Assembly (NCBI GenBank): GCA_028868855.1
Contig: JAGWTR010000004.1
Location: 239,547-303,546 of the forward strand
DNA length: 64,000 bases
Reading direction: 5' to 3'
Origin: Burkholderiales bacterium
GTDB taxonomy: Bacteria; Pseudomonadota; Gammaproteobacteria; Burkholderiales; Burkholderiaceae_C
Under the pieces are notes generated by a model that was not told the origin of the DNA, made no database searches, and worked only from the letters and a program-made list of their open reading frames with translations. Positions 35,754-55,617 of this stretch are shown here, in pieces. Within the stretch, counting starts at the first letter, position 1. Each line of letters starts with the position of its first letter. The translations under genes and the position numbers were made by a program.

Positions 35754-38700
35754 TTGAACGCATCGGCTTCCACTCCGCTTTCTGTCCTGCGCTTCTGGCG
35801 TGATCTGGAAGTCTTCAACATCCCGACCGCACCATCGGCCAAGGACAGCAGCGACCAGGTCAAGATCGTCACGCTCAGACGCGGCGATGTCCTGCCTTGG
35901 CAACACCCTCACTTTCAGCCAACACAAGAGCATGGCTACGTCCATGTCGTCTATGTGGGCGTGGCCGACACGGAGCACCTCTCCCGGTTGATGCTTCAGT
36001 CGGTGTTCCCCGAGGAAGACCTCAGTGAGCGCGAACGCCAGCGCGCAGCCGGAAACGGCTGGCTTGCCGCCTTCGTCGCCAACGAAGATGGCCACCCCAA
36101 GCTCGACAGCTACCTGCCTGCCAGCTTTGCCCACGGGGTCGATGCCCTGTGGCATTCGGAGCCCCTGGAGAACATCAACGCCCGACTGGCACGTGCCACG
36201 GATGAGTTCGGTCAACGACGCCACCACCTGCGGCCCGTCGCCACTGACGCGCAGCAAACGCCGCCCACTGGCCAGCCCGACACCCCACCAGCGCCAAGCC
36301 CCTTGACCTGGAGCGATCTGGACGAAGAGTTGCGCACCGTGTGCAAGCTGCTGGGCCCAGGGGCCGATGCGGCAAGCCTGGACTGGCGTGTGGTGGTTCG
36401 GGTGTCACGGGTCAAGCGCCGCTTCCTCGATGACAGCCTCAACGCCGCCATCGACTACCTGAACTCCTTCTACCTGGATGACCTCAACCGCCTGATTACA
36501 CAGGCGGGCAAGAGCAAGCCCTTTGGCAAAGCCCTGAGCACCTTTCTGAGCTCGCCCATTGCGCCTGAACAGCGCATCGACATCCTGAACGACCACGCGG
36601 CCATGGGTGAATTGGTGAGCGTAGCCCGCTTGCCCAGCGCACGTTGGCCAGCCTCACCAGAGGCCCCACTGGTGCTGGCTCAGCAAGCTGCGGTGGCCCA
36701 GGTGCTGAGCACCGTGGGACGCGATGGCGGCACATTGGGTATCAACGGCCCACCGGGCACGGGCAAGACCACTTTGCTGTGCGATGTGATCGCCGAGGTG
36801 GTCACCGAGCGCGCGCGCAAGATCGCCTCGCTCAGCCGCCCCATCGAGCTGTTCGAAGACAGCGTGAGCGTGGCGGGCAAAAACTTCTTCCCGCTCAAGG
36901 CCAAGGTGGTGGGCGGCTCGTCCATCGTTGTGACCAGCACCAACAACAACGCGGTCAAGAACATCACGCAGGAGCTGCCTGCCCGAGAGAAGGTGCATAG
37001 CGACTTTGCCTCGGCCACCTACTTTGACGAGGTGATCCGAGAGGTGTTCGCGGCCCAGAAGGTGGTGGACGACGACAAGCAGCCCATCGACTGCTGGGGC
37101 CTGGTGGCCGCCGCGTTGGGCAATGCAGGCAACCGCCGCTCTTTCGCCCGGGGATTTTTTCGGGACGAAGCGCGTCAGGCACCCAACACCGAAACGTCAT
37201 CGCCTGGCAATGCACAAGAAGACGATGCCCCAGGTGCGGCCGCTCAAGCCAGCACGCCTGCGCCCGCCGATCCGTTGCCACCGTCGATCAAACAACTGCT
37301 GGAAGCGGCCAGCAACGACTACACACGCTATCAGGGCGAATGGCATGCGGCCAAGAAGTCCTTCCTGGCGCTGCTGGGTGACTTCGATGCCCGCCGTGGC
37401 GTCTTGCTTCAGGCTGAAAAGGCGGCTCAGCGGATCGATGCCTGCCAGCAGCGGGTCAATGCCCAGCGTGATGCAGCGCAGGCCCAGGCGCAAGCAATCG
37501 ACCAAGCCAGCCGCCACCTCGCGCAGCTTCAGGACAACAAGGCCATCCAGCACGCCTTGGTCGATTCCCGCCGGGCCACGCTCGACCAGGCACGTTCGCA
37601 TTGCCTGCCCAACCTATGGGACAAACTGTGCGCTTTGTTTGGGCAGGACACCGAACGCATGAAGGCATTGCGCGCCACGCTGGTCGAGCCCACGCGGGCC
37701 TTGGCGCAAGCCGCCGAAGCGCTGGCCCAACTGGCGCAGGATGGCGCCATGGCCGAAGCACGGCTGGAGCAACAGCGCGAGGCGCACCGCGCCCAGGTCT
37801 TGACACTGCAGGGTTCCGAGCGCGAATTGCAAGGCCACCAACGTGCGCTGAAAGCCGGACAAGACACCGGGGCACGGCACTTCCCCGATGCCAGCTTCTG
37901 GCAACTGCCCGCCGATCAGCGCCATCGCGCGTCGGTGACGGTCAGCCCCGCGCTGGACGCACTGCGGGCCCGCATCTTCCTGCAAGCCATGGAGCTGCAC
38001 CGACTGACGGTGTTGGCCAACGCAGGCAAGTTCATCGGCAACCTGCGCGCCGTCAACGGCATGCTCACCGGTTCGCTGAAAGACAAACTGCCCCTGGAGC
38101 AGCGCCCTCTGTTGTGGGACGTCTTCTTCTTCATCGTGCCAGTGGTTTCGACCACCCTCGCGTCCTTCGACCGCCTGTTCGCTGGCATGGGCCAGGACAG
38201 CTTGGGATGGCTGCTGATCGATGAGGCTGGGCAAGCCACCCCGCAATCTGCAGCCGGTGCCATCTGGCGCAGTCAGCGAGCGGTGCTTGTGGGCGACCCC
38301 TTGCAGATCGAACCCGTGTTCACCGTGCCCTTGATGCTGGTCGAAGAGTTCCGCCGCCGCCACGCCGTGGACCCCATGTGGTCGCCCAATGACGAGTCGG
38401 TCCAGACCCTGGCCGACCGTGTTACCCGTCATGGCTCCTGGGTCGCATCCCAAGTCACCAGCGGCGCCGTCGATGCGGAGAAGGCTCAGCCCATCTGGAC
38501 AGGGATGCCCTTGCGCACGCACCGCCGCTGCGACGATCCCATGTTCAACGTGGCCAACCGCATTGCCTACGCTGAACAGATGGTGCATGGCCGTGTGGAC
38601 GATCTGGGCCAGCCTGAAAAAACGAAGTTCACCTGCGTGCTCGGTGACAGCGTCTGGCTGGACGTGCGCGCCATCCGCGCCAACCATCCGGTCATCGAAG

Positions 38701-39158
38701 ACGAACTCCATGTCCTGGTGAACTGCCTGCGCCAGCTTCAACAGCAACCAGCATTCACACCTGCCAGGAAGGCCGGGGGCAAGGACAAGGCCGCCAAGGT
38801 GTTCGTGATCTCGCCGTTTCGCAAGGTCAAGAACGCCTGCATCAAGCGGATCAAGGATGCAGGGTTGGGCCATATCGAGTGCGGAACCGTGCACACCTTC
38901 CAGGGCAAGGAAGCAGAAATCGTGTTCCTGGTGCTGGGCACGGCCCCAGGGCAGGCCGGGTCAGGCGCGCGTGCCTGGGCTTCGGGCAAGCCCAACCTGC
39001 TGAATGTGGCCATCACGCGGGCCAAGCATCGCCTGTATGTAATCGGGGACGTAGAGCAATGGGGTGGGCTGAATCATTTCAGCGAGTTGAACCAAGACCT
39101 ACCCATGATCAAAACGATGCACATGGGTAAGACGGCACAACCCGCCCCAATGCACTGA
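35754..39158 (+). CDS. Upf1-like superfamily I helicase / AAA ATPase
   Basis: Walker A GINGPPGTGKTTLL, Walker B LLIDEAGQATPQS, GTVHTFQGKEAEIVFLVLG, NVAITRAKHRLYVIGD; long coiled-coil insert. Confidence 0.9.
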   Translation: MNASASTPLSVLRFWRDLEVFNIPTAPSAKDSSDQVKIVTLRRGDVLPWQHPHFQPTQEHGYVHVVYVGVADTEHLSRLMLQSVFPEEDLSERERQRAAGNGWLAAFVANEDGHPKLDSYLPASFAHGVDALWHSEPLENINARLARATDEFGQRRHHLRPVATDAQQTPPTGQPDTPPAPSPLTWSDLDEELRTVCKLLGPGADAASLDWRVVVRVSRVKRRFLDDSLNAAIDYLNSFYLDDLNRLITQAGKSKPFGKALSTFLSSPIAPEQRIDILNDHAAMGELVSVARLPSARWPASPEAPLVLAQQAAVAQVLSTVGRDGGTLGINGPPGTGKTTLLCDVIAEVVTERARKIASLSRPIELFEDSVSVAGKNFFPLKAKVVGGSSIVVTSTNNNAVKNITQELPAREKVHSDFASATYFDEVIREVFAAQKVVDDDKQPIDCWGLVAAALGNAGNRRSFARGFFRDEARQAPNTETSSPGNAQEDDAPGAAAQASTPAPADPLPPSIKQLLEAASNDYTRYQGEWHAAKKSFLALLGDFDARRGVLLQAEKAAQRIDACQQRVNAQRDAAQAQAQAIDQASRHLAQLQDNKAIQHALVDSRRATLDQARSHCLPNLWDKLCALFGQDTERMKALRATLVEPTRALAQAAEALAQLAQDGAMAEARLEQQREAHRAQVLTLQGSERELQGHQRALKAGQDTGARHFPDASFWQLPADQRHRASVTVSPALDALRARIFLQAMELHRLTVLANAGKFIGNLRAVNGMLTGSLKDKLPLEQRPLLWDVFFFIVPVVSTTLASFDRLFAGMGQDSLGWLLIDEAGQATPQSAAGAIWRSQRAVLVGDPLQIEPVFTVPLMLVEEFRRRHAVDPMWSPNDESVQTLADRVTRHGSWVASQVTSGAVDAEKAQPIWTGMPLRTHRRCDDPMFNVANRIAYAEQMVHGRVDDLGQPEKTKFTCVLGDSVWLDVRAIRANHPVIEDELHVLVNCLRQLQQQPAFTPARKAGGKDKAAKVFVISPFRKVKNACIKRIKDAGLGHIECGTVHTFQGKEAEIVFLVLGTAPGQAGSGARAWASGKPNLLNVAITRAKHRLYVIGDVEQWGGLNHFSELNQDLPMIKTMHMGKTAQPAPMH

Positions 39159-39272
39159 ACTGCAGGGCCAAGAGTTGTCCACAAAAGCTGGGGATAACTT
39201 TGTGCGTCGATCAGGCCTGCGCCCGAGCGATCCGATTGAGTTTTCGGGGCGCTTAATTTTGGGGCAGTGGAT

Positions 39273-39470
39273 GGCCAAGCCCTCGGGCGTGAACTGGGCA
39301 GCCAATCGCAAAGGGCTCTCCACCGTGCCTTTGTAGTAACCGAAGTCGTGGTTGTTGAAGTACTTCACGATGCCATTTCCGGGCAAGCCTGCTACAGCTG
39401 GGCGATCTTGTCATTGTGCTCATCGGTGAATTCGCCATGCTTCTCTCCCAGGGTCTTGCCACAACAACTA
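39273..39470 (-). pseudogene. hsdM fragment (paralogous to the hsdM at 50752-53157)
   Basis: KYFNNHDFGYYKGTVESPLRLAAQFTPEGLA matches FHNRDFGYYKVTVERPLRLAAQFTPERMA of the intact hsdM; frame broken around it. Confidence 0.8.
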
Positions 39471-39838
39471 CACCAGGCCATGCCAGCCATCAAGCGGCCT
39501 AGCGTTCAAGGAGTTGAAGAGCCTCAGCCTATGGCACACACTTCTTGGGCCAGCCATTGCGTCAGGCGCGCATGGACACAGCCGCCTCCAGTTCGGAGGA
39601 CATCAGCTTACGGCACAGCTTGCACATGGCTTCACGAACCTTTTGCGGGCCAAGCCAAGCCAGGCCAACGCCCCGCCATGTCAGCCGCAAGGCGCCCGAG
39701 CGAGATCAACGGCCCGCGTGTAGATGCCCAAGCCAAGTCCAGGGCACCCGCCGATCCATGTGCTTAAATTGCGTAAATTCTCAGCGTCAGGCGTACCCGC
39801 CATCCGGTGTGGAAGCAGGAGCTGAATAAGGAGGAGTT

Positions 39839-40831
39839 GTGGGGGAGACCATCAACATCGGTGAGATCGCGGCCAAGCTTTCGAGAGACATCTTCCGACA
39901 CTTTCTTTGGGAAACGCATCCGAAGACTGACGACAACTTCGAGTGCACGAATGACAAGCACTTGGGCGACGGCGGCAAGCCGAAAGCCACGCATCCTGGC
40001 GATGTCGTATTCATGTACGGCGACCCGTACCTTGGCAAAGTCGTCTATCTCCACACTGACCTAAAAAGCTACGCCGCAGATTCCATTAATGCGACACGAC
40101 TGCGAGGCGCTTTTAAGTCTCTGTGCATGACCATTGATTGCGCGCGATGCTCAGGCTCTTGGCGAACCAAGTATTCAGTCGATGAATCCGAGGCCCATGA
40201 GGTTCGAGGGCTGCTTTTCGTTCATAACCACGACAATGGGTACGACAAGCCGTTCTACGAAGCTATTGACAAAGTTGATCTCCAAGCGCTGCCAGTAGCG
40301 CCGAGTACCCAGTTACATTTTCTTGGCCCACAAGATATACAGCGCCTATACAGCATAGCGAATGACATTCTTAGACTAAAGGGCGACGGTGAATTACCAA
40401 AAGACTACACGTTCTACTACCCTGACTTGGTGATGTCTCGGCGTCAAGGTGATGTTTGGGCGCAGCCCGCAACTGTAGAGACACTTACGGCGCCATACAT
40501 CATTATCAAACACCATGCGACCGATGAACGAAGCGCTGGCTATGTCATTTATTACAATGCACCAGCATCGTGTCCAGAAGAGTTTGAGTACTTCCTAGAT
40601 AGTCTGTCTAGGTTTCAGATGCTGGAATCAGGGGAGCGAATTCTTTTGCGCGTGACCCATCCTGATGCCCCAAATGACCTTAAATCCATCTTCCTGATGG
40701 CACGGAAAAAATACGTGAAAGCCTGGGGTTTCGATCCAGCCCGTGAATCGATACTCAGCCAAATACAAGTCGAAAGAATAACAAGCGTGACCAGCACGTA
40801 CAACCCGGGAGATATGGGGTGGCGGGAATGA
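39839..40831 (+). CDS. Hypothetical protein with PD-(D/E)XK-nuclease-like motif (cassette gene 1)
   Basis: GTG start after strong SD AAGGAGG; HPGDVVFMYGDPYLGKVVYLHTDLKSY fits PD-x(n)-DxK. Confidence 0.75.
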   Translation: MGETINIGEIAAKLSRDIFRHFLWETHPKTDDNFECTNDKHLGDGGKPKATHPGDVVFMYGDPYLGKVVYLHTDLKSYAADSINATRLRGAFKSLCMTIDCARCSGSWRTKYSVDESEAHEVRGLLFVHNHDNGYDKPFYEAIDKVDLQALPVAPSTQLHFLGPQDIQRLYSIANDILRLKGDGELPKDYTFYYPDLVMSRRQGDVWAQPATVETLTAPYIIIKHHATDERSAGYVIYYNAPASCPEEFEYFLDSLSRFQMLESGERILLRVTHPDAPNDLKSIFLMARKKYVKAWGFDPARESILSQIQVERITSVTSTYNPGDMGWRE

Positions 40832-41928
40832 AAAAACGATCACATGGCCCGTCGCTCTATTACGCGAGTGACAAAAATGTCTTTGACGCATTGAATCAAC
40901 ACAAGGTGGACACGCCAACGGTGGTTCGACTTTTTCAGCGCCGCAACATCGTGGTCAGCAAAAAGACCGCTCGGGAAGACTTGGCAAAGTATTTTTCAAC
41001 GCTGACGCACGACTACTACGACCACAAGGAAATTGCCGCTCGACTTGGCGTCGCGGCACGGCGAGAGCGCACCACTTCTATGGACGTCTCCGGTGTCAAC
41101 GACACCGACGAACTACAGGGCGTTGTCGATAGGGTCAAGAAAGAGATGGAAGCCAGCGGGGACATCGTACAGGTGACGCGCGAAGGTGACAATCTGAGCA
41201 TTCGGGTGCAGTACTCCGAGGTGGACTACAAACGCAGTGAATTCGCGCAAGTTCAGGTTCGCGATGGGACGATCGAATTCGTCAAGTCTGGGACTGGCTA
41301 TGTGGTCCGCAATACGCAAAACGACTATCTGAATGGTGTAAGAGAGACGCTGTTATCCAAGGTCGAAGAATCATCCACAGCCCCTTTGACAAAAATCGTC
41401 GTTTCGCTGTTTGACATTCCGTCGACAAAGTTGCGATCCAAGTTCTTCCATGAGTTGGCGAGTTCTATGCCTGGTTACGTCAGGCGCGATGTCACAGACG
41501 TATATGTGTTCAAGGCAAAACCAGAGCCAGGCAATTCCGATAGCGAAGAGACGGATGAGAGCACGGGCACCCATGTCGAACGCGTTTTCCTCCGCGGCAG
41601 CGGGGTGAGTCGCTCGGAAATATTAAACGATCTGCTGGACGAGGAAAACTACTACATCATTAAGATGGGATGGACTGTCACCGAAACTATGGGAGCAGGC
41701 AATGTATTTGATATTGAAGCCGGGTTTTCAGACTCCAAGGACTGCACAGGCTTCTCGTTCATTCTAAGCGGGGTGTTTCCTTTGGAGGAGGGAACGCTAT
41801 CCAAGCGTCGCCGCCCACCTCACAAGCACGAGATAGACACAATATCGCGCATTATTGAAACAAAGGCTCGGGACCTTGTATCAACGTTGCGTACAGAGTA
41901 CGCAAGTGAAAGCACTGGAGGCGTGTGA
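40828..41928 (+). CDS. Hypothetical protein (cassette gene 2)
   Basis: ATGA overlap with gene 1; 366 aa; N-terminal helical/HTH-like region KVDTPTVVRLFQRRNIVVSKKTAREDLAKYFSTL. Confidence 0.8.
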   Translation: MKKRSHGPSLYYASDKNVFDALNQHKVDTPTVVRLFQRRNIVVSKKTAREDLAKYFSTLTHDYYDHKEIAARLGVAARRERTTSMDVSGVNDTDELQGVVDRVKKEMEASGDIVQVTREGDNLSIRVQYSEVDYKRSEFAQVQVRDGTIEFVKSGTGYVVRNTQNDYLNGVRETLLSKVEESSTAPLTKIVVSLFDIPSTKLRSKFFHELASSMPGYVRRDVTDVYVFKAKPEPGNSDSEETDESTGTHVERVFLRGSGVSRSEILNDLLDEENYYIIKMGWTVTETMGAGNVFDIEAGFSDSKDCTGFSFILSGVFPLEEGTLSKRRRPPHKHEIDTISRIIETKARDLVSTLRTEYASESTGGV

Positions 41929-42608
41929 TGCTAACCAGATATCGGTGGTTTCGAATTCAACTCCCCTATGGCGCTCAGGATGCATCTGAACTGGTTGCAA
42001 AGTGCGCATTTGATTCGACATCGGCTTTTGGTTTTGCCCCCATTTCAACCGGTGGCATAGGTGCCAGCTTTCGTTTTTTCTGGCGCACGCGTATTGTCGT
42101 AACCAGGCTGGAGGCTGATGGCTCACCGGCATATGAGCAAATTGACAGCGTTAGCTTTACAGACTTTTCGTTGGTCACCCAAGACAAAATAATATTTTTA
42201 CGCATTGAGAACCCAGGTAGAAATATCCGAGACTTACTCAATGCGCTTGAAACGCTCGCAGGCTTGGGTTTTACTGCACAGCCAATCACGTTTGATCGGG
42301 GTAGGCCATCGACTGTGTTCAACGCCGTCGATTCATCCAAGCTTGTGGGCTTAAAAGTCGTTGGCGCGGTGATAGCGGATGACTTGGTTGCTCGAATGGA
42401 GTTCGCATCCAAGCAAGGCATGGTTGTCGAGGATATGACGGTTCTTGCGGGCCTGCGTTACAAGGTTGAGTTGGCGGTATTCGAGGTTGTGCTGAGTGGC
42501 CTAAGAGGTCAAGTAGCGTTTGCGGCAAACGGCACCGTCAAGATCAGTGGGCAATTGGCACCAAAACTAATAAGCCTCATTGAACAAGACTTACCCACTC
42601 TCGTATAG
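41928..42608 (+). CDS. Hypothetical protein (cassette gene 3)
   Basis: ATG overlaps the gene 2 stop codon by 1 nt; coherent 226-aa ORF, same strand. Confidence 0.75.
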   Translation: MLTRYRWFRIQLPYGAQDASELVAKCAFDSTSAFGFAPISTGGIGASFRFFWRTRIVVTRLEADGSPAYEQIDSVSFTDFSLVTQDKIIFLRIENPGRNIRDLLNALETLAGLGFTAQPITFDRGRPSTVFNAVDSSKLVGLKVVGAVIADDLVARMEFASKQGMVVEDMTVLAGLRYKVELAVFEVVLSGLRGQVAFAANGTVKISGQLAPKLISLIEQDLPTLV

Positions 42609-42773: not shown

Positions 42774-43258
42774 TTACATCGCAGGCCGGTCCATCCAGCC
42801 CCCACTGGAAATCAGCCGGGAGATGCTGGCGTCAAATGCGCGCTTGAAATCCGGGTCAGAGGCGTACTGTTTGTACAAGTCCAGTTCCCGCCTGCGCTCC
42901 ATGCTGATGGCCTGCTGGATGATCTTCTCCAGGGCCAACTGCCTGTTCTGTGCATCGGGGTTGTCTTCAACCTGGGCACGGTAATCAACGTGCGCCACCA
43001 CATGCTTGGCGATGTTGATGAACTTCACCCGCTGCTCTTCAGGCGTTGCTTCCCAGCCTGCAAAGTGGCGCTCGTTGAAGGTGCGCACAATGTCTTCCAA
43101 CGGATCCTTATCGCCCTCCCCCATGTGCGCACCGCGCAGATTGGGGTTTGCTGGCTCTTGTTCAGCCTCGGATTCATCCAGGCCGATCTTGACCTCCAGA
43201 CGGGAGCGCTCCAGGCCGTAGGTCGACAGGTCCACGCTGTTGAGCAACTCGTCCAGCT
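42774..43258 (-). pseudogene. hsdR: hsdR 3' fragment (Type I restriction subunit C-terminus), separated from 5' part by IS21 element
   Basis: LDELLNSVDLSTYGLERSRLEVKIGL...IISKHVVAHV-type HsdR C-terminal sequence; joins in frame to ...KDPDQDKL if the IS is removed. Confidence 0.9.
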
Positions 43259-43325
43259 CCCCGATGGCCACCTCAAATTCCCCCACCTGTGGCCACCCCA
43301 AATTCCCCCAGGCAGAACGCTCGGA

Positions 43326-44090
43326 TTATGCTGGATCTGAGTTGATGGCCAAGCGCGCTGCTGCCTCCTTGAGGCGGTAGCTCTTGCCCTCAAATTCCAG
43401 CATGGCGCAGCGGTGCATGAGGCGGTCCAGGATGGTGGTGGCCATGGTGGCATCCCCGAGGTATCGGCTCCAGTCCTGCACGATGCGGTTGGAGGTGATG
43501 ACGATGGATCGGCGCAGCTTGTAGCGCTGGTGCACGAGGGCCTGCAGCAGCTCGGCGGCGTGCTCGCTGATGCGCCGCGCCAGGAACAGGTCATCGAGCA
43601 CCAGCAAGTCGGCGCCCACCCAGCCCTTGAGCAAGCGTGCACGCTCGTCGGCATCTGCCAGGCTGTAGCGGGCGAACTCGCTGTCGGCCTCGACGTAGCT
43701 CACGTCATAGCCCTGCAGGGTGGCCTGGTAGGCCACGGCCTTGGCGATGTGGCTCTTGCCGGTGCCGGGCTTGCCCACGATCAAGGCGTTGGCGCCCTCG
43801 CTGAGGAATTTCAAGGTGTGCAGCTCGAAGCAGGCTGCACGCGGCAGCTTGGGGTTGAAGCGCCAGTCGAAGTCGGCAAGTACAGGCCTTTCATCAAGAC
43901 CAGAGAGCTTGAAGCGGCGCGCCATCAGGCGGCTGTTGCGTCGGTCGAGTTCGTCTTGCAGCAATGCTGCCAGGGTGTCCATGAAGGGCTCCTGCGCGGC
44001 CTGGGCCTGCATCACACGGGTTTGCAAGGTCTCGGCCATGCCTGACAGGCGCAGCTTGCGCAGGGTGATTTCGATGTCATGCGTGTTCAT
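43326..44090 (-). CDS. istB: IS21-family ATPase helper protein IstB
   Basis: IVGKPGTGKSHIAKAVAYQA Walker A; LLVLDDLFLARR Walker B. Confidence 0.96.
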   Translation of the reverse strand: MNTHDIEITLRKLRLSGMAETLQTRVMQAQAAQEPFMDTLAALLQDELDRRNSRLMARRFKLSGLDERPVLADFDWRFNPKLPRAACFELHTLKFLSEGANALIVGKPGTGKSHIAKAVAYQATLQGYDVSYVEADSEFARYSLADADERARLLKGWVGADLLVLDDLFLARRISEHAAELLQALVHQRYKLRRSIVITSNRIVQDWSRYLGDATMATTILDRLMHRCAMLEFEGKSYRLKEAAARLAINSDPA

Positions 44091-45703
44091 GCGAAGAGGT
44101 CTCCTTGGGGTGTGGATTCGGTCGTGGTGCTAGCAGAGGCAAGAGCGAACAGATCGCCATATTCCTGCGGACTGCGAATGAGGTCGTGGGCTTGCGTGGG
44201 CTGCGCCGCCCGCTGGGCTGCGGGGTCTGCGCTGTCCATGCGGCGCAGTGCGTCAGCCACCAACCGCTCGGTGATGGCCTTGACGTGGCTGTAGCTGTAC
44301 AAACCGTCATCGAGGGCCTGGGCGCAGGCCGCATTGACCATCTGGCGCGGATAGCGATCGGCCAAGTGCACGATGCCCCACAGCTTGCGCTGGCCCACGC
44401 GCCCCTCAATGGCAAACAGCAATTGGCACAAGCGGGCCGCATCCACACCGATGTCATCGGCTTGGCGCAAGATAGCCCGCGTCTCGCGCGAGGGGTTGAA
44501 GACGCGCTCTTCATTGGGCAGCACCACGGTGCCGGGCCGCTCAGCCTTGGTGTGCGTGCGCAGCAGTGCCTGGGTCTGCAGGTCACGGATCTCCAGGCGA
44601 CGCTCGAAGATGCGCACCAGCACTTGCGCGCCAATAGGCGCAGGGCGTGCCGCATAACTGCAGTGGGCCACGCGCACGCAGCCGTCATCGCACACGGTGC
44701 GCTGCTCGTCGCTAAAGTACAGCATGGGCAGTACCGACAAGGGCTGCAGGTGGGCACGTTCTTCCTCGAACATGGCCTGCACCTGGCGGCGCTCAGAACC
44801 ATGGATGCGCGAGGCTGCCCACTTGGTCTCCCAGTGCTCCAGGTAGGCATTTTGTTCTTCGATGGTCTCGAAGCGCTTGCCCTTGAGTGCGGTGGCCTGG
44901 GTATGGCCAATGGCATTCTCGACGCTGCCCTTGCGGTTGGGGTCACGCACTCTTGCCGGATCAGCTACGACCTCGTAGTGCGCCAGGGTGGCGGCGTACA
45001 CGGTGTTGAGTTGGGGCTCGTACAGGTCGGGCTTGAGCACGCCCTCCTTGAGGTTGTCGAGCACCACATAGCGGCATGAGCCGCCGAAGTAGCGCCAGGC
45101 CTGTTCATGCAGTTCAGCCCAGACCTGCTGACCAGACTTCCACACCACGCGCCGGAAGCTGCGCCGCGAGTAACGCAGCGTGGCAACGAACAGGCGGGGC
45201 TTGCGATAGCGATCGCTGCCGGGCACGCGGGTGGGCGCGCCCTCGCCATAGTCGACCTGCATCTCCTCTCCGGGCAGGAAGCTCAGGCGGTCGAACTGCT
45301 CTGGCTCGCGCACGCGGATGCGGGCCACGAAGCGCTTGACGGAGTTGTAGCGGCCCGCAAAGCCGTGCGCATCGACCAGCTCCTGGTAAATGGCCATGGC
45401 GTTGCGCCCAAGCTTGAGTTGCGCCTCGATGAAGGCCCGGTGTGGCTCGCACAGGGAGGTTGTGCTGGCGCTTGCACCCAGTGTTGATGCCGGTGGCCGG
45501 GGTGGGGTAGTTTGATCCGCAGCAGGTGCAACAGGGTCGGTGGCCACCCCGGGGGAATTTGACCGCTCGGCCTGCCAGCGTTTGTCGTAGCTTCTGACCG
45601 TCTTGCGGTCAATGCCGGTGATGCGAGCAATCTCGCGTTGGCTCGTCTTGCGCTCCAGCAGCGTGTAGACGGTTGCCCTTTGGTTGGGTTTCAAAACATT
45701 CAC
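44087..45703 (-). CDS. istA: IS21-family transposase IstA
   Basis: HTH TSQREIARITGIDRKTVRSY; rve core EEMQVDYGEGAPT...; YVVLDNLKEGVLKPDLYEPQLN. Confidence 0.96.
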   Translation of the reverse strand: MNVLKPNQRATVYTLLERKTSQREIARITGIDRKTVRSYDKRWQAERSNSPGVATDPVAPAADQTTPPRPPASTLGASASTTSLCEPHRAFIEAQLKLGRNAMAIYQELVDAHGFAGRYNSVKRFVARIRVREPEQFDRLSFLPGEEMQVDYGEGAPTRVPGSDRYRKPRLFVATLRYSRRSFRRVVWKSGQQVWAELHEQAWRYFGGSCRYVVLDNLKEGVLKPDLYEPQLNTVYAATLAHYEVVADPARVRDPNRKGSVENAIGHTQATALKGKRFETIEEQNAYLEHWETKWAASRIHGSERRQVQAMFEEERAHLQPLSVLPMLYFSDEQRTVCDDGCVRVAHCSYAARPAPIGAQVLVRIFERRLEIRDLQTQALLRTHTKAERPGTVVLPNEERVFNPSRETRAILRQADDIGVDAARLCQLLFAIEGRVGQRKLWGIVHLADRYPRQMVNAACAQALDDGLYSYSHVKAITERLVADALRRMDSADPAAQRAAQPTQAHDLIRSPQEYGDLFALASASTTTESTPQGDLFA

Positions 45704-45847
45704 TCCTTGGCCTTCCCTCGGGGAAGGCCGGATGTCAATGTCCTGCCGCAGGTGCCAGCAACGCCAGCGTTTACTCCCTGACCCCGATCAACTCAGGTGG
45801 GGGAGTTTGAGGTGGCCATAAGTGGGGGAGTTTGGGTGGCCGCCAGG

Positions 45848-48328
45848 GTCCAGCTTGTCCTGATCTGGGTCTTTGACCTTCAGCTTGGGGATGAGGAACT
45901 TCAAGAACCAGTGCAGCATCTCCCAGTTCACGTTGTTGAACGGCAAGATGGCCGCCACCTGGGCATAGATCTTGACGAACTGCTTGGCCTTGATCTTGAA
46001 GTCGATGCGCTTTTCATCGTCAAGATCGGCATCAAACCGTGCCACCACTGCGTCGATGATCGGCGCCAGTTCCTCTGCCTGTGCGCTGGCGAAGAACTTC
46101 TCGTTGAAGCTCTTCACCTCGCTCCAATCGAAGATGCCAAAGGCATCCAGCGCATCCTTCAGGTCATGCAGCACGTTCACGTCGGTGGGCTCGCTCAGCG
46201 ACGTGGCGGTGTAGAACGGATCGAAGGCGGCCTTGATGTCGTCCACCGAGTTATAGAAGTCCAGCACAAAGGTATCGCGCTTGTCGAGCTTCCAGTTGCA
46301 GCGATTGAGGCGAGACAGCGCCTGAACCGCCAGCACGCCCTGCAGCTTCTTGTCCACGTACATGGTGTGCAACATGGGTTCGTCAAAGCCGGTCAGGTAC
46401 TTGTTGGCCACCACCAGGATCTTGAAGTCATCCTTTTCGAACTCGTCCGGCAGGTCACGCACGGCGATGCCGTTGATGCTGTCTTCGGTGTACTTGACGC
46501 CGTCCACCGTCTTCTCGCCAGAGAACGCCACCAGCGCCTTGAACGGCGCATTGGCTTCCTGCAAGGCGGTGCGGATGGCGAAGAAGTAGCGAATGGCGCA
46601 CTCGATGTTGCGGGTGACCACCATGGCTTTGGCCTTGCCCTTGAGCTTCTTGGCCTGCCACACACTGCTCATGAAGTGATCGACCATGATGCGGGCCTTC
46701 ACTTCGATGGTCTTGGGGCTGGCCTCCACAAAAGCCTTGAGTTTCTTGTGGGCCTTGGCGGTGTCGAACAGCGGGTTGCCTTCGACTGACTTCTGCACCT
46801 CGTAGTAGCTCTTGTACGTGGTGTACTTCTCCAGCACATCGAGGATGAATTTCTCCTCGATGGCCTGCTTCATCGAATACAGGTGAAAGGGGTAGAACTT
46901 GCCGTCTGCGCCTTGGCGGCCAAACTTTTCCAGCGTGGCAGGCTTGGGCGTGGCCGTGAACGCGAAGTAACTGGCGTTCTTGCTCATCTTGCGGCCCGCC
47001 ATGGCAGCCAGGATCTTGTCCTGGATGTCCTCGGGCGCTTCGGCGTCTTCGCCGCCAATGGCCTCGTTCAGACTGTCGGCGCTGGTGCCCGATTGAGATG
47101 AGTGGGCCTCGTCAATGATCACCGCAAAGCGTCGGTCCGTCAGGGCGTCCATGCCTTCAACGATGCGGGGGAACTTCTGCACCGTGGTGATGATGACCTT
47201 CTTGCCCGCCTCCAGGTTGTACTTCAGCTCCTGCCCGCTCTCGCAGTGGGCAACGATGTTCTTGGTTTCGGAGAACAGCTTGATGTTGTCCTTCAGCTGG
47301 GTGTCGAGCACGCGACGGTCTGTCACCACGACCACAGAATCAAACACGTTGGCCGTGCCTGCCTGGTTGTACAACTCCACCAACTGATAAGCCAGCCAGG
47401 TGATGGAGTTGGACTTGCCCGAGCCCGCCGAGTGCTGGATCAGGTAGCTCAGGCCCACGCCGTTCTGCTGGGCGTCGGCCAAGATGCGGCGCACCACATC
47501 CAGCTGCTGGTAACGGGGGAAGTACAGCGCCTTGCGCTCCTTGCCCGTCTTCTTGTCCTTCTCAACCGTGAACTTGGCGAACTGCTCAATGATGTTGCTC
47601 AGGCTGCGGCGCGCCAGGATCTCTTCCCACAGGTACGCTGTTTTATAGCCGTTCGGGTTGACCGGGTTGCCCTTGCCGTGGTCCACGCCCTTGTTGAATG
47701 GCAGGAAGTTGCTGTCCTTGCCCGCCAGGCGGGTGCACATGTAGACCTCGTCAGGGTCTGCGGCCAGATGCACCAGGCAACGTCCGAACTCGAAGATCGG
47801 CTCATTGGGATCGCGCAGGTTGTACTGCTTGTAGATGGCGTTCCAGACCGTTTGCCCGGTCCAGGGGTTCTTGAGCTCAATGGTGGCGATGGCCAGGCCA
47901 TTGACGAACAGCACCATGTCGATGGACTTGAGGCTGTCGGTCTCGCTGTAGTGCACCTGCCGGGTGACGCTGAACACATTGGCTTCGTAGCGGGCCAGCA
48001 CCTCGGGGTTGAGCTGGTTGTAGGGCTGGCGGTAGAGCAGATCGAAGTGGGCGTCATCCACATCGAGCCCCTTCTTGAGCACGGCCAGCACGCTGTCCTT
48101 TTTGATCTTCTTGCTGAGCCGCTCCAGCACCAGGCGCTGCCAGTTGGGGCGGTCTTTGAGCTTGGCCACCTCCTGGGGTTGGGTGGATTCCAGAAAATCC
48201 CAGAACAGCTGGCGATCGACCGCAAAGGTCCGGTCAAAGTCAGCCGGGTTACCAACGCGATAGCCATCCTTGACCAAGGCTGTTTCAATGTGCGTTTCAA
48301 GCGCGGCTTCGTTGGTTTGACTGACCAT
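45848..48328 (-). pseudogene. hsdR: hsdR 5' part (Type I restriction endonuclease subunit R), interrupted by IS21
   Basis: SAGSGKSNSITWLAYQL Walker A, VIIDEAHSSQSG DEAH box, TIELKNPWTGQT nuclease motif, YFAFTATPKPATLEKFG. Confidence 0.95.
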
Positions 48329-49634: not shown

Positions 49635-50755
49635 CACTTGCCCGCCTTCTTGCTGGCCGCAGGCTGGCTGCCATCTTGACCACTCGCCACGGCGCTCTCG
49701 GCCGCCCACTCCTGCAAGCGCTGCTGCAGCTCGTCTTTGCTGGGCAGGTACAACTGGTATTCCGAGGCGTGCACATTGGCGTCCTGGGGCAGCGTGATCT
49801 CCACCAGCGCGTCGTTCTTCTTCTTGCACAGGATGATGCCGACGGTCTTGTGCTCGTCGTCGCGCTTCACGAAGCGGTCAAAGTAGTTCACATACATCTG
49901 CATCTGCCCCAGGTTCTGGTGGGTCAGCTTGCCGAGCTTGAGGTCGATCAGCACATAGCAACGCAGCAGGCGGTTGTAGAACACCAGGTCCACGAAGAAG
50001 TGTTCTTCTTCAAAGGTGAAGCGCTTTTGCCGGGCCTCGAACAAGAAACCCTTGCCCAGCTCCAGCAGGAAGTGCTCGATCTTGTTGATGATGGCCGCTT
50101 CCAGGTCGGATTCTGAATAGCTGCTGCGCTCTTCCAGGCCCAGGAACTCCAGCACATAGGGCGTCTTGATGAGGTCCTTGGGCGCTTGAATCAGGTCGCC
50201 TTCTGCGGCCAGTTGGCCGATGGCCTGTGGATCGCGGCTCAGTGCCAGGCGTTCAAACAAGCCACTGTCGAACTGGCGGCGCATCTGCGCCAGCGTCCAG
50301 GTGCCACGGGCCGCCTCGATCTCGTAGAAGCGGCGCTCGTCGGCATTGCGCAAACCTGTCAGGAACACATAGTGCGACCACGACAGCTCAGCCAGAAACC
50401 CCAAGGGGCTCGATTCGTCAGACGCCGTCTGACGAATTTCGGGCTTGCGCTCCGCGTAGGCCTGGTAGAACAGACGGCAGTTCTTGAGGTTCGTTGCCGA
50501 GAAGCCGCGCCCAAAGCGGGCGGTCAATTCAGAGGCCAGTCCGTCCAGCAGGCTCTGACCATAACCCGCCCGGTCTTGCCCGCCCTGCAGCGCCTGCACA
50601 ATCTCGCGCCCGATGAGCCAGTAGGCCAGCACCATCTCGCTGTTGACCGTGCGCGCGACGCGCTGGCGCGCATCTTCCAGGATGGTGACGACACGGCCCA
50701 GCAACTCGCCAGGCAAGGCCGCTGCCTGGGGCGCCACAACCTTGCGCGGGCTCAT
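49634..50755 (-). CDS. YhcG/DUF1016-family PD-(D/E)XK nuclease
   Basis: VLAYWLIGREIVQ, GFSATNLKNCRLFYQAY, FVDLVFYNRLLRCYVLIDLKLGKLTHQNLGQMQMYVNYFD. Confidence 0.93.
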   Translation of the reverse strand: MSPRKVVAPQAAALPGELLGRVVTILEDARQRVARTVNSEMVLAYWLIGREIVQALQGGQDRAGYGQSLLDGLASELTARFGRGFSATNLKNCRLFYQAYAERKPEIRQTASDESSPLGFLAELSWSHYVFLTGLRNADERRFYEIEAARGTWTLAQMRRQFDSGLFERLALSRDPQAIGQLAAEGDLIQAPKDLIKTPYVLEFLGLEERSSYSESDLEAAIINKIEHFLLELGKGFLFEARQKRFTFEEEHFFVDLVFYNRLLRCYVLIDLKLGKLTHQNLGQMQMYVNYFDRFVKRDDEHKTVGIILCKKKNDALVEITLPQDANVHASEYQLYLPSKDELQQRLQEWAAESAVASGQDGSQPAASKKAGK

Positions 50756-53157
50756 GCCCCTGCCCCCACAAAAGCCACCAAGGCCTTGAGCAGGCCATCC
50801 GTCTCGGCCTCCAGGGCCAGGATTTCCTGGGTCACCGCTTCCAGGCTGCGCAACGGCTTGTGCTGGTAGAAGTATTTGTTGAAGCTGATTTCATAGCCGA
50901 TGACAGTCTTGTCCAGCGCGATCCAGGCCTCGTCGACATGAGGGCGCACTTCCTTGATGAAGTAATCGTGGATGACGCCAGAGGCGGGCAGGCTGGCGTC
51001 CAGTGAGAGCGGCACGTTTTCGGTGTCGCGCAACTCGCTGTCAGGTTCGTACTCGATGTACTCGCCCGCCTTGGCCGCTTTCTTGCCGCCCTTGGTTTCA
51101 GCGGCGGCCTGCACCTCTGCTGGCCAATAGCCATGGTCGGCCAGCTTGTCGGCCGTGGTTTTCAGTTCGGCCAACAAGTCCTTGAGCTTGGCTGCGTTGA
51201 GCTGGTGTCGCTTCTTGATCACCTTGGCTGCGCGCGGGTCTCGCCAGCTCACGGCGTTCAGGATCTGCTTGCGCTCGTTCGCAGCAAGCTTGAGGCCCAA
51301 GGCCTTGATGGCATCGTCCACCAGGGCTTCGAACACATTGAAATCAAGGTGCTCTGCACTGCCGATCACCCCTGCCAATTGCTGAGCGGCCTGCATGATG
51401 GACCGCTGCGCCAGCCAGGTGGTCTCAGACAACAGCTCTTTGCGGCTCTTGGGCGAAAGGGTGATTTCTTCGCGCTCAAGGTGGTTCTCAATGGCCTCGG
51501 CATGGGCCTGCAGGCCGGTATAGACCTCTTCGCCATACTTGCCGTGCACCCATTCCATGATCTCCTGCATGCCCGGCGTGTAGCGCAAGGTGGCCATGCG
51601 CTCGGGTGTGAACTGGGCCGCCAATCGCAATGGGCGCTCCACCGTGACTTTGTAATAGCCGAAGTCACGGTTGTGGAAGACCTTCGAGATGCCATCCGCA
51701 GGCATGGTCAGGTACAGCTGGGTGATCTGCTCAATGTGCTCGTCGGTGAACTCGCAGTTCTTCTCACCCAGGTTCTTGCGCAGTTTCTGGAACAAGTTGG
51801 AGGCGTCGATCAACTGCACCTTGCCCTGGCGCTTGGCAGGCTTGTTGTTCGTGAGCAGCCACACGTAGGTGGTGATGCCGGTGTTGTAGAACAGGTTGTT
51901 GGGCAGCTGGATGATGGCTTCGAGGTAATCGTGCTCGATCAGGTGGCGGCGGATGTTGCTCTCGCCACTGCCTGCATCACCTGTGAACAGGGCCGAGCCG
52001 TTGTGGACCGATGCAATGCGCGAGCCGGCAAACCGCACAGGGCTGTCGGCACGGCGCTTCATCTTGTCCACCATCTCCATCAGAAACAGCAACTGCCCAT
52101 CTGAGGAGCGAGGGATGGCCGGGTAAAAATCAAAGCGCTCGCCCGTGTAGTCGGACAGGTTGACCTGGAAGCGGTGGTCAATGACTTCCTTGCCTTCAAC
52201 AATGCTCTTCTGGTCGCTCTTCCATGACTTGCCGTAGGGCGGGTTCGTCAACATGAAGTCGAAGCGCTTGCCAGAGAAATCGTTGGTGGCCAGCGTGGAG
52301 CCAAAGCGGATGTTCTCGGGGTCGTTGCCCTTGATCATCATGTCGGACTTGCAGATGGCATAGGTCTCGGGGTTGACCTCCTTGCCGTACAAGAAGACGC
52401 CCACCTTGGCCTTGATCTCGCCTTCAGGGTCGGTCACGAAGTCCTGGGACTCGGTCAACATGCCACCGCTACCGCAAGCGGGGTCGTAAATGGTCAGCGG
52501 GTTGGGAAGCTGATCCTTGACGGGGATGAACACCAGGTTCGTCATCAGCTTGATGACCTCACGCGGCGTGAAGTGTTCACCGGCCTCTTCGTTGTTCTCT
52601 TCGTTGAACTTGCGGATCAACTCTTCGAACACGTAGCCCATGCCCAGGTTGGACAAGCCAGGCTGTGTGCGGCCATCCGGGCCCTTGCGGTCATCTGGGC
52701 TGAGGTTGATTTCTTCGGAGACGAATTTTTCGATGACGTCGTGGAGCACGTCGGACTGCGCCATCTTGCGGATCTGGTTGCGCAGGTCGAACTTATCGAC
52801 GATTTCCTTCACGTTGTCCGAAAACCCGTCGAGATAGTTCTTGAGGTTGGCTTCCAGTTGCGTGGGGTTGCCCAGCAGGCTCTTGAGCGTGAATTTAGAG
52901 GTGTTGTAGAAGACGTAGCCAGACGCATCGCGCAGGCCATGCGGATCCAAATCAGCCATGGCCGCGTCTTCTTGCTGGAACCGCACTTCTTCGAGCACAC
53001 CAGCCTTACTCGGCTCCAGCAAGCAGTCCAGGCGGCGCAGAACGAACATGGGCAGGATCACGTCACGGTATTTGCCCCGTACAAAAACGTCGCGCAAGCA
53101 GTCATCTGCAATGGACCAGATGAACGAGACGATCTTGTTATGTGCTGCGTGATCCAT
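50752..53157 (-). CDS. hsdM: Type I restriction-modification methyltransferase subunit
   Basis: GEHFTPREVIKLMTNLV, YDPACGSGGML, DFMLTNPPYGKSWK. Confidence 0.95.
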   Translation of the reverse strand: MDHAAHNKIVSFIWSIADDCLRDVFVRGKYRDVILPMFVLRRLDCLLEPSKAGVLEEVRFQQEDAAMADLDPHGLRDASGYVFYNTSKFTLKSLLGNPTQLEANLKNYLDGFSDNVKEIVDKFDLRNQIRKMAQSDVLHDVIEKFVSEEINLSPDDRKGPDGRTQPGLSNLGMGYVFEELIRKFNEENNEEAGEHFTPREVIKLMTNLVFIPVKDQLPNPLTIYDPACGSGGMLTESQDFVTDPEGEIKAKVGVFLYGKEVNPETYAICKSDMMIKGNDPENIRFGSTLATNDFSGKRFDFMLTNPPYGKSWKSDQKSIVEGKEVIDHRFQVNLSDYTGERFDFYPAIPRSSDGQLLFLMEMVDKMKRRADSPVRFAGSRIASVHNGSALFTGDAGSGESNIRRHLIEHDYLEAIIQLPNNLFYNTGITTYVWLLTNNKPAKRQGKVQLIDASNLFQKLRKNLGEKNCEFTDEHIEQITQLYLTMPADGISKVFHNRDFGYYKVTVERPLRLAAQFTPERMATLRYTPGMQEIMEWVHGKYGEEVYTGLQAHAEAIENHLEREEITLSPKSRKELLSETTWLAQRSIMQAAQQLAGVIGSAEHLDFNVFEALVDDAIKALGLKLAANERKQILNAVSWRDPRAAKVIKKRHQLNAAKLKDLLAELKTTADKLADHGYWPAEVQAAAETKGGKKAAKAGEYIEYEPDSELRDTENVPLSLDASLPASGVIHDYFIKEVRPHVDEAWIALDKTVIGYEISFNKYFYQHKPLRSLEAVTQEILALEAETDGLLKALVAFVGAGA

Positions 53158-53333
53158 AAATACCTGGGAAATCGGGGGAAATCGCGATGGGCATGATTTT
53201 CCACCGAGCCAAGGCTCGATTGGATCACTGAATGTCTGGGGCATGCGCGATACAGCAACGGCCAACTGCTCGGAATCGCTGGGCGTGAGACCCAGAGACT
53301 TGACACTGTATAAATCCACATGGAAAATGTGAT

Positions 53334-53355
53334 AAAACACTACCTGTAGTGTTTT
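53334..53355. promoter_or_regulatory. 22-bp palindrome AAAACACTAC-CT-GTAGTGTTTT between divergent hsdM and capV
   Basis: 10-bp perfect arms in the 243-bp divergent intergenic region. Confidence 0.6.
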
Positions 53356-53400: not shown

Positions 53401-54432
53401 ATGTCAGCACCTGCCCCCTGTTCAGCGTCACAGCCAGATCAAAACAAGGTATTCCAAGTCCTTGCACTTTCAGGCGGCGGCTACAGAGGCCTGTACACCG
53501 CAAAAGTGCTTGCAGACATCGAGCAGGAGCTCCAGTGGCCCATCGCAACCAAGTTCGATCTGATCACAGGCACCTCGATTGGCGGGATCTTGGCGCTGGC
53601 CCTCGCATTGGAAATCCGGGCGCAAACGATGGTTGACCTCTTCGTCAAGCACGGCGAGGAGATCTTCAAAAAGCGCTGGTCTTTTCTGGGAATGGTGCGC
53701 GCACCCTATTCGCCCGCATCGCTCAAGGCGCAACTTGAGGCCCCCGAAGTCTTCGGCGACCGACTCCTGGGCGCTTGCCTTCACCCCGTGATGGTCCCCT
53801 CCATCAACTACACAACGGGTGAGCCTGTTGTCTTCAAGACGGGGCATCACCCCACGTTCAAACGAGACCACAAACATCGCCTGGTGGACATCGGGCTTGC
53901 GACCAGTGCTGCGCCGGCCTACTTTCCGCGTCATGTGTTCAATGGGGGGCAGTATGTCGATGGTGGGTTGTTCGCGAACTCACCGGGACTGCTCGCGCTC
54001 CATGAATCGCAGCATTTCTTCGGTAGAGATATCAAGCACATCCGCATGCTGAGCATCGGGACGATGTCGTCGAAGTTCACCGTTGACCCTCGGCACAACC
54101 GGCAAGGTGGCGCCTACGACTGGGGTGGCTGGAACCCCAGCAACATGCCCAAGAGGCTCTTTGGGTTGTCCATCTCCGCACAAGAGGTTCTGACTGACAA
54201 GGTGCTGGAGCACCGTCTGGAAAACCGATACCTGCGCATCGATGACGACCTGTTCGATGAACGTGCCCGAGCGGTCGCGCTCGACAAGGCCGATGCCCAC
54301 GCACGTGAGGTGCTGCTCGGCGCCGCCATTGAGCGCTCGAAACGATGCATCAGTGACCCACGCCTCTTGGCTTTCTTGGAACACTCGCCACCCAAGTCAG
54401 TCTTCTTTCACGGCGAACACGCATCTCCTTGA
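53401..54432 (+). CDS. capV: Patatin-like phospholipase CBASS effector (CapV)
   Basis: VLALSGGGYRGLYTAKVL oxyanion motif, GTSIGGILAL (GxSxG), DGGLFANSPG catalytic Asp; adjacent CD-NTase. Confidence 0.93.
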   Translation: MSAPAPCSASQPDQNKVFQVLALSGGGYRGLYTAKVLADIEQELQWPIATKFDLITGTSIGGILALALALEIRAQTMVDLFVKHGEEIFKKRWSFLGMVRAPYSPASLKAQLEAPEVFGDRLLGACLHPVMVPSINYTTGEPVVFKTGHHPTFKRDHKHRLVDIGLATSAAPAYFPRHVFNGGQYVDGGLFANSPGLLALHESQHFFGRDIKHIRMLSIGTMSSKFTVDPRHNRQGGAYDWGGWNPSNMPKRLFGLSISAQEVLTDKVLEHRLENRYLRIDDDLFDERARAVALDKADAHAREVLLGAAIERSKRCISDPRLLAFLEHSPPKSVFFHGEHASP

Positions 54433-54444
54433 CCGGGGTCTCTC

Positions 54445-55617
54445 ATGCTGAAACTCAATCGACTGCTGTTCGCCACTTCCGAGACCGATGTCTTCATCGA
54501 CCGCCTCGCCCCCACCCCACATCAACGGGAAACCTTGGTTCAGGCCAAGAACGACATTCGGGATCATCTGCGGCCACGCATACGAGCGGCGACAGTGGCC
54601 GTGCTCGGCATGGACAAGGCAGTCGACCCCAAATTCCGCACCCAAGGCTCCTGGTCGTACAGGACCTGCATCCAGCCGGCATGGCAGCCACCCCAGGAAA
54701 TGGATTGGGACTTCGGTGTGTACTTACCGGTCACCGTGTGGGAAGACAATGGCCCGCCACACAAGATGGCGAAGCTCTACTTCACGCTGGTGGAGAGACT
54801 ACTGGCGGACCTTTGCACGGACAAGGGTTGGGAACTGATCAAAGGCAAGGACACCTGCATCAGGATCCAGATCAACAACTGGGCGCACATCGATATCCCT
54901 TTGTACGCTGCGCCTGAGGAAGAGTTCGCGACGATCCTGGAAAAGTCCTTCTCCGCTCAGTTGACGCTTGACTCGGCGCGAGGCGCCCTGGTTGAGAATG
55001 CGGCGTTCGGCGAGATCGCAGAACAAGAGTGGGCCGACCTGGATCACATCGTGATGGCAACACGGTCTGGCGAATGGAAATCATCAGACCCTGAAGCTGT
55101 CTCGAAGTGGTTCCTTGACCGTGTGAAGGAACATACCGATCAGCTGCGCCGGGTGTGTTGCTACCTCAAGGCTTGGCGTGACCTGCATTGGAAAGCTGGC
55201 GATGGGCCCACGTCCGTTTGCATCATGGTGGCCGTCGCACAGAAGTTCGAAGCGATCCGTGGCCGTGACGATCTGGCCTTGGAGGCTGCGTCCAGGACCC
55301 TCGCCAACGCTTTGCGCGGAGATATCCGTGCGCCAGGCATTGACGAAGGCAAGGAAGACTTCAACAAGCGCTTGAATCCGGCGCAACGGGAAGAGGCTTC
55401 AGCCATGGCCAGCACCCTGGCGCAGCAAATTCAGGCTGCGCGACTGAAGCCCATGCACACGCCGGGTGATGCCATCGACATCATCCAAAGCCAACTTGGA
55501 TTGCGCATCCCAATGCGGACCGATCTGGTCGAGCCAGACAGCGGCAATGATGCGGTGAGAAGCGTGCCTGCTCGTGAGGTCAGCCGCCCGATCGTCAGAG
55601 CCACTACGGCTGGCTGA
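54445..55617 (+). CDS. DncV-like CD-NTase (cyclic dinucleotide synthase)
   Basis: QGSWSYRTCIQPAWQPPQEMDWDFGVYLP (GS...DxD) and third Asp in NNWAHIDIPLYAAP; CBASS context. Confidence 0.93.
   Translation: MLKLNRLLFATSETDVFIDRLAPTPHQRETLVQAKNDIRDHLRPRIRAATVAVLGMDKAVDPKFRTQGSWSYRTCIQPAWQPPQEMDWDFGVYLPVTVWEDNGPPHKMAKLYFTLVERLLADLCTDKGWELIKGKDTCIRIQINNWAHIDIPLYAAPEEEFATILEKSFSAQLTLDSARGALVENAAFGEIAEQEWADLDHIVMATRSGEWKSSDPEAVSKWFLDRVKEHTDQLRRVCCYLKAWRDLHWKAGDGPTSVCIMVAVAQKFEAIRGRDDLALEAASRTLANALRGDIRAPGIDEGKEDFNKRLNPAQREEASAMASTLAQQIQAARLKPMHTPGDAIDIIQSQLGLRIPMRTDLVEPDSGNDAVRSVPAREVSRPIVRATTAG

What the first reader, a model, noticed from the sequence alone, without database searches (positions are those of the whole stretch)
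39839..42608. Uncharacterised, tightly coupled three-gene cassette with a PD-(D/E)XK-like first gene inside a defence island
Seen directly: three same-strand ORFs (330, 366 and 226 aa) with an excellent SD (AAGGAGG) before a GTG start, then ATGA and 1-nt overlaps, which predicts one translationally coupled operon. The sequence is visibly more AT-rich than its neighbours. Gene 1 contains HPGDVVFMYGDPYLGKVVYLHTDLKSY, which fits the PD-x(n)-(D/E)XK nuclease signature. I recognise no family for genes 2 and 3. The cassette sits between an Upf1-like helicase/hsdM remnant and Type I R-M plus CBASS, the usual company of anti-phage systems. Function is inference; I cannot exclude that it matches a recently catalogued defence family such as other nuclease-plus-partner systems.
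Basis: partly seen in the sequence, partly recalled or inferred. Interest (0 to 1): 0.85.

Follow-up and report, generated by a model that had tools for sequence, protein, structure and literature searches.

The report
Rst_3HP anti-phage cassette, divergent member
The three genes are a diverged copy of Rst_3HP, a bacterial virus-defence system already shown to block phage P1; structure prediction adds that its first protein looks like a nuclease and its unexplained third protein folds like the DNA-encircling protein RdgC.

Summary
The three ORFs are real, lie exactly where stated and are tightly coupled. They are not an uncharacterised system. Genes 1 and 2 match PADLOC Hp1 (E 6e-79) and Hp2 (E 1e-42). 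Gene 3 falls below PADLOC's Hp3 model, but it is Hp3 by PHROG family (E 1e-11), by profile-profile comparison (E 7.5e-18) and by position. This is Rst_3HP, found at the P2-prophage hotspot and shown by Rousset et al. (2022) to protect E. coli against phage P1. A homologous phage operon is already labelled Rst_3HP Hp1/Hp2/Hp3 in its public record. All 95 related loci with enough downstream sequence keep the three genes in order. Two findings go beyond the labels. Hp1 and Hp2 are distant relatives of the GapS4a/GapS4b pair. Hp3 has a confident model (pLDDT 93) matching E. coli RdgC and human CENP-L, a DNA-clamp fold also seen in the lambda exclusion protein RexA. Most likely mechanism (inferred): Hp3 and Hp2 recognise phage DNA and direct or gate the Hp1 nuclease.

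The parts
39828..39834 (+). Shine-Dalgarno AAGGAGG, 4 bases before the GTG start of gene 1
   Evidence: Read from the sequence; the same leader AAGGAGGAGTT precedes the GTG in relatives L001, L011, L014
39839..40831 (+). Gene 1, Hp1 of Rst_3HP, PD-(D/E)XK-like nuclease (D55, D74-L-K76)
   Evidence: PADLOC PDLC03004 E 6e-79; phrog_7059 E 5e-103; invariant motif in 43 relatives; AlphaFold2 pLDDT 88 with alpha-beta-beta-beta-alpha-beta core
40828..41928 (+). Gene 2, Hp2 of Rst_3HP, distant relative of the GapS4b partner
   Evidence: PADLOC PDLC03005 E 1e-42; phrog_6531 E 1e-89; Hp2 profile against the GapS4a neighbour, E 1e-9 and hhalign prob 86
41928..42608 (+). Gene 3, diverged Hp3 of Rst_3HP, RdgC-like predicted fold
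   Evidence: phrog_5850 E 1e-11, also hit by 42 of 43 aligned third-gene proteins; profile-profile against distant Hp3, E 7.5e-18; AlphaFold2 pLDDT 92.8; Foldseek to RdgC 2owl E 1.3e-6, prob 1.00

Best explanation
The cassette is a chromosomal, diverged member of the known anti-phage system Rst_3HP (Hp1-Hp2-Hp3). Most likely it works as a DNA-surveillance nuclease. Hp1 is a PD-(D/E)XK nuclease effector (inferred from invariant motif and predicted fold, about 0.85). Hp3 is an RdgC/RexA/CENP-L-fold protein that contacts or encircles DNA (predicted fold shown here; DNA binding inferred, about 0.6). Hp2 is the obligate partner shared with GAPS4 and links recognition to the nuclease (inferred, about 0.45). 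On infection the complex recognises phage DNA or a phage replication or recombination intermediate, and Hp1 cleaves nucleic acid. Whether it cuts only phage DNA or also kills the cell is open. Shown: identity, three-gene linkage, motif conservation, predicted folds. Not shown: any activity in this organism. The confidence given is for the identity and the nuclease-effector reading; the full mechanism is nearer 0.4.
For: PADLOC Hp1 and Hp2 hits. Hp3 by phrog_5850 and profile-profile comparison; PADLOC's own Hp3 model PDLC03006 hits 34 of 43 members of the same alignment. Homologous Vibrio phage operon annotated Rst_3HP__Hp1/Hp2/Hp3. E. coli and Klebsiella homologues sit between portal gene Q and the replication endonuclease of P2-like prophages, the site from which Rousset et al. 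cloned a three-gene system protecting against P1 (PMC9122126). DefenseFinder lists Rst_3HP as mostly prophage-borne (PMC9090908). Order Hp1-Hp2-Hp3 in 95 of 95 loci with room. Invariant H52 P53 D55 and D74 L75 K76. Hp1 core topology, and its more probable PDB matches are PD-(D/E)XK enzymes: HamA of Hachiman, MspJI, EndoMS/NucS, Cap4, Can2. NCBI names the E. coli homologue a PD-(D/E)XK nuclease domain protein. RdgC fold of Hp3, with precedent in the phage-exclusion protein RexA (PMC11077077).
Against: PADLOC's Hp3 model does not hit gene 3 at E below 1, so standard tools may call the locus incomplete. Overall identity to the phage-borne homologues is low: about 42% for Hp1, 29% for Hp2, 17% for Hp3. 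Hp1's fold matches do not reach E 0.001. The RdgC match is structural only, with no sequence-level signal and TM about 0.55. No gene carries a sensor domain identifiable by sequence. The P1 result comes from a homologue, not from this copy.
Confidence: 0.85

Rival explanations
1. A new, uncharacterised defence system merely resembling known ones.
For: Gene 3 escapes PADLOC's Hp3 model and Pfam, and the closest copies form their own, mostly betaproteobacterial branch.
Against: Full-length Hp1 and Hp2 hits, Hp3 by PHROG and profile-profile, same order everywhere, and a named homologous operon.
Confidence: 0.04
2. A three-gene GAPS4 system: the GapS4a/GapS4b nuclease pair does the work and gene 3 is an accessory.
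For: GapS4a profile hits Hp1 weakly (E 2e-7; 21 of 43 relatives, best 2e-14). The neighbour of a true GapS4a gene matches the Hp2 profile (E 1e-9), and no Hp3 is found there.
Against: Gene 1 scores 30 bits against a curated cut-off of 270. Hp3 is never missing in 95 loci with room, which argues against an optional accessory. GapS4a aligns Ser-Val-Lys near where Hp1 has Asp-Leu-Lys (read by eye).
Confidence: 0.1
3. A toxin-antitoxin-like module: Hp1 is a general nuclease toxin held in check by Hp2 and/or Hp3 and released on infection, giving abortive infection.
For: Tight translational coupling and a nuclease-like first gene; many defence nucleases act this way (general knowledge).
Against: No known antitoxin fold or family for Hp2 or Hp3. 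The RdgC fold points to DNA contact.
Confidence: 0.25
4. Hp3 is a RecA/recombination regulator like RdgC or RexA that interferes with phage DNA circularisation or recombination, and Hp1/Hp2 only assist.
For: RdgC-like model. RdgC restrains RecA and RexA is a phage-exclusion protein (PMC11077077).
Against: The catalytic motif is invariant in Hp1, which implies that nuclease activity matters. RexA's exclusion did not strictly need DNA binding (PMC11077077).
Confidence: 0.1

Closest known systems
Rst_3HP (Rousset et al. 2022; PADLOC PDLC03004/03005/03006, DefenseFinder Rst_3HP)
   Same: Same three families, same order, same tight operon; homologues protect E. coli against P1.
   Different: Chromosomal defence island instead of a P2-like prophage. 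About 42/29/17% identical to the Klebsiella phage copy. Hp3 has diverged beyond PADLOC's model.
GAPS4 (GapS4a + GapS4b)
   Same: First gene distantly homologous to GapS4a; second gene matches the GapS4b-position protein.
   Different: Far below the GapS4a cut-off; carries Asp-Leu-Lys; has a third, RdgC-like gene that was not found at the one GapS4a locus examined.
RdgC (E. coli, PDB 2owl), CENP-L, and lambda RexA
   Same: Hp3's predicted fold matches RdgC and CENP-L (Foldseek prob 1.00); RexA is reported to share the RdgC fold and acts in phage exclusion.
   Different: No sequence similarity detected; Hp3 is shorter (226 aa against about 300); RexA works with the membrane protein RexB, not with a nuclease.
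HamA (Hachiman), MspJI, EndoMS/NucS, Cap4
   Same: PD-(D/E)XK nucleases that head the more probable PDB matches of the Hp1 model.
   Different: Matches are weak (E above 0.01), so only the common core is shared; none has Hp2 or Hp3 partners.

Membership tests
Rst_3HP | Gene 1 homologous to Hp1 | tested here: met
   PDLC03004 E 6.2e-79, residues 2-327 on profile 3-329 of 333
Rst_3HP | Gene 2 homologous to Hp2 | tested here: met
   PDLC03005 E 1.3e-42, residues 10-350 on profile 5-344 of 359
Rst_3HP | Gene 3 homologous to Hp3 | tested here: met
   phrog_5850 E 1.2e-11, a family also hit by distant Hp3s; profile-profile E 7.5e-18, prob 99. PADLOC's own Hp3 HMM does not reach this copy although it hits 34 of 43 relatives: a limit of that model.
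Rst_3HP | Three adjacent genes in the order Hp1-Hp2-Hp3 on one strand | tested here: met
   95 of 95 relatives with room
Rst_3HP | Protection against phage (P1 for the original) | not testable with these tools
   Reported for a homologue (PMC9122126)
PD-(D/E)XK nuclease superfamily (gene 1) | Conserved D ... (D/E)xK catalytic motif | tested here: met
   D55, D74, K76 invariant in 43 of 43
PD-(D/E)XK nuclease superfamily (gene 1) | alpha-beta-beta-beta-alpha-beta core fold | tested here: inconclusive
   Element order and motif placement fit at pLDDT 88; best-probability PDB matches are PD-(D/E)XK enzymes, but no E below 0.001
GAPS4 | Gene 1 above the curated GapS4a cut-off (270 bits) | tested here: not met
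   30.3 bits
GAPS4 | GapS4b-type second gene | tested here: inconclusive
   Distant homology only, Hp2 profile E 1e-9, hhalign prob 86
RdgC (gene 3) | RdgC fold | tested here: met
   Foldseek E 1.3e-6, prob 1.00, TM 0.55 on a pLDDT 92.8 model
RdgC (gene 3) | RdgC sequence family (Pfam PF04381) | tested here: not met
   No Pfam hit; no signal against the genome's own RdgC. So it is RdgC-like in fold, not an RdgC.
RdgC (gene 3) | Ring-shaped dimer around DNA | not testable with these tools
   Monomer prediction only

The most novel reading that the evidence does not exclude
Rst_3HP is a clamp-guided nuclease: a GapS4-type nuclease pair (Hp1-Hp2) that has gained an RdgC/RexA/CENP-L-fold DNA clamp (Hp3) to recognise phage DNA or its recombination intermediates. 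This would be a new sensing principle shared with lambda Rex exclusion.
Probability: 0.35. Interest if true: 0.6.

Novelty: new member of a known kind. Interest (0 to 1): 0.35.

Why it matters
The cassette itself is a further copy of a catalogued system. It shows that PADLOC's Hp3 model misses a mostly betaproteobacterial branch, so the system is probably under-counted. The useful new lead is mechanistic: Rst_3HP had 'no clear predicted domain', and here it gets a nuclease, a link to GAPS4 and an RdgC-like DNA-clamp fold. That makes a concrete, testable model for a system whose mechanism I did not find described.

Tried and rejected
Pfam, NCBIfam and PDB sequence searches gave no useful family for genes 2 and 3; scattered low hits (Spore_GerAC_N, DUF4518, Schlafen AlbA_2) were treated as chance. 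I tested whether Hp2 and Hp3 are related to each other: no. I looked for sequence-level RdgC homology: none. DNA-level search in E. coli genomes with the window cassette found nothing, although the phage-type copy is in 18 of 5,426 E. coli genomes. Literature searches for GAPS4 returned no relevant paper, and none listed linked RdgC to Rst_3HP. A SAP/helix-extension-helix reading of the Hp2 N-terminus was considered by eye only and is not claimed.

Full report
OBSERVATION. The three ORFs are exactly as described: 39839-40831 (330 aa, GTG), 40828-41928 (366 aa) and 41928-42608 (226 aa), with ATGA and 1-nt overlaps and AAGGAGG four bases before the GTG. The leader and the GTG start recur in close relatives. 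GC of the genes is 0.50-0.52 against 0.605 for the window (profile). Codon-position counts against four relatives show purifying selection on all three genes. The defence surroundings are confirmed by PADLOC: an MkoC-like helicase, Type I M, S and R subunits, a DUF1016-type PDC-S02 protein, and CBASS phospholipase, cyclase and E1-E2.

IDENTITY. Gene 1 is Hp1 (E 6e-79) and gene 2 is Hp2 (E 1e-42) in PADLOC. PADLOC's accessions 03004, 03005 and 03006 are Hp1, Hp2 and Hp3. Gene 3 itself is not reached by the Hp3 model, but it matches phrog_5850 (E 1e-11). That family also takes 42 of the 43 aligned third-gene proteins, 34 of which are PADLOC Hp3. A profile built only from close relatives of gene 3 aligns with a profile built only from distant Hp3 proteins over 213 columns (prob 99, E 7.5e-18), and it finds the third ORF in most distant loci. 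A homologous operon in Vibrio phage 1F53_PE003 is annotated Rst_3HP__Hp1/Hp2/Hp3 in its record.

WHAT IS KNOWN OF IT. Rousset et al. [quoted passage not shown] DefenseFinder (PMC9090908) lists Rst_3HP as mostly prophage-borne and cites Rousset for its systems. The name '3HP' is not in the Rousset main text; the link rests on the DefenseFinder citation and on the matching hotspot position of the homologues. E. coli and Klebsiella homologues lie at that site. The phage-type copy is in 18 of 5,426 complete E. coli genomes.

DISTRIBUTION. Relatives at 63-88% identity occur mostly in Betaproteobacteria (Brachymonas, Achromobacter, Oryzisolibacter, Pseudogulbenkiania, Paraburkholderia, Curvibacter and others). 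More distant ones lie in plasmids, Caudoviricetes and filamentous Pseudomonas phages. Hp1 was found in 1 of 369 genomes across the class, 7 of 399 in the order and 9 of 301 in the family, own genome included. In all 95 loci with at least 2 kb downstream of Hp1, Hp2 and Hp3 follow in order. The Hp1 set was chosen by Hp1 similarity only, so the linkage is not built in, though the Hp2 and Hp3 profiles used for detection include some of these loci, and many of the 95 are near-duplicates.

GENE 1. The residues H52-P53-x-D55 and D74-L75-K76-S77 are invariant in 43 non-redundant relatives. The AlphaFold2 model (pLDDT 88, pTM 0.88) places D55 on one strand and D74/K76 on the next, in the order helix-strand-strand-strand-helix-strand, as expected for PD-(D/E)XK enzymes. 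Foldseek gives no match below E 0.001, but the more probable matches are PD-(D/E)XK nucleases: HamA of Hachiman, MspJI, EndoMS, Cap4, Can2. NCBI's pipeline already names the E. coli homologue a PD-(D/E)XK nuclease domain protein.

GENE 2. There is no known domain. The Hp2 profile matches the gene beside a true GapS4a (E 1e-9 in a seven-protein search; hhalign prob 86), while the mismatched comparisons gave nothing. Gene 1 is likewise a distant GapS4a relative but far below its cut-off. The Hp3 profile found nothing at that GapS4a locus. This rests on a single GapS4a locus.

GENE 3. The AlphaFold2 model is confident (pLDDT 92.8). Its best PDB matches are both chains of E. coli RdgC (E 1.3e-6 and 1.1e-5, prob 1.00, TM about 0.55) and human CENP-L (E 1.6e-4, prob 1.00); the named viral matches are mostly RdgC proteins. 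A depositor independently annotated the third gene of Pseudomonas phage 54-4 as RdgC-like. No sequence-level similarity to RdgC was found, and the genome has its own true RdgC elsewhere. [quoted passage not shown] A DNA-contacting fold in a phage-exclusion system therefore has a precedent.

MECHANISM. Best reading: Hp3 (DNA clamp) and Hp2 (GapS4b-like partner) recognise phage DNA or an intermediate of its replication or recombination and direct or license the Hp1 nuclease. Hp1 being a nuclease is well supported by inference. The roles of Hp2 and Hp3, the trigger, and restriction versus abortive infection are open. Main rivals: an abortive-infection toxin module (0.25), a GAPS4-like pair with an accessory gene (0.1), and a recombination-blocking Hp3 (0.1).

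VERDICT. A known system and a new, diverged member; ordinary as a discovery, but with a useful mechanistic lead in the RdgC-like third gene and the GAPS4 link.

Noticed in passing
window 43264-45819, minus strand: An IS21-like element (istB 43326-44090, istA 44087-45703, 26-nt inverted ends at 43264-43289 and 45794-45819) appears to interrupt hsdR: the main ORF (45788-48328) ends inside the element and a tail ORF that reads like an HsdR C-terminus lies at 42774-43301. The Type I enzyme is probably inactive.
   Followed up: partly
window 39099-39386, minus strand: A short remnant resembling a C-terminal stretch of HsdM (compare FGYYKVTVERPLRLAAQFTPE in the intact hsdM at 50752-53340) lies just left of the cassette, as if the cassette had entered a partly duplicated R-M locus.
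   Followed up: no
window 35754-39158, plus strand: Large Upf1-like helicase ORF (1134 aa) with PADLOC MkoC/MkoA similarity (E 3.5e-64), without an evident partner among the neighbours tested.
   Followed up: partly
window 53401-57765, plus strand: CBASS operon: phospholipase effector, nucleotide cyclase, E1-E2 protein, and a following ORF that reads like a JAB peptidase.
   Followed up: partly
L018 and L020 (Pseudomonas phages 99-2 and 54-4): Rst_3HP homologues sit in filamentous (Tubulavirales) phage genomes of only about 13 kb, an unusually large defence cargo for such phages.
   Followed up: no
L010 and L012 (Curvibacter lanceolatus): Hp1 is split at residue 149 between the ends of two scaffolds, possibly an assembly break at an insertion.
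   Followed up: no
L121 (GapS4a locus of genome G052): GapS4a has Ser-Val-Lys near where Hp1 has Asp-Leu-Lys; the second acidic residue may differ between GAPS4 and Rst_3HP.
   Followed up: no
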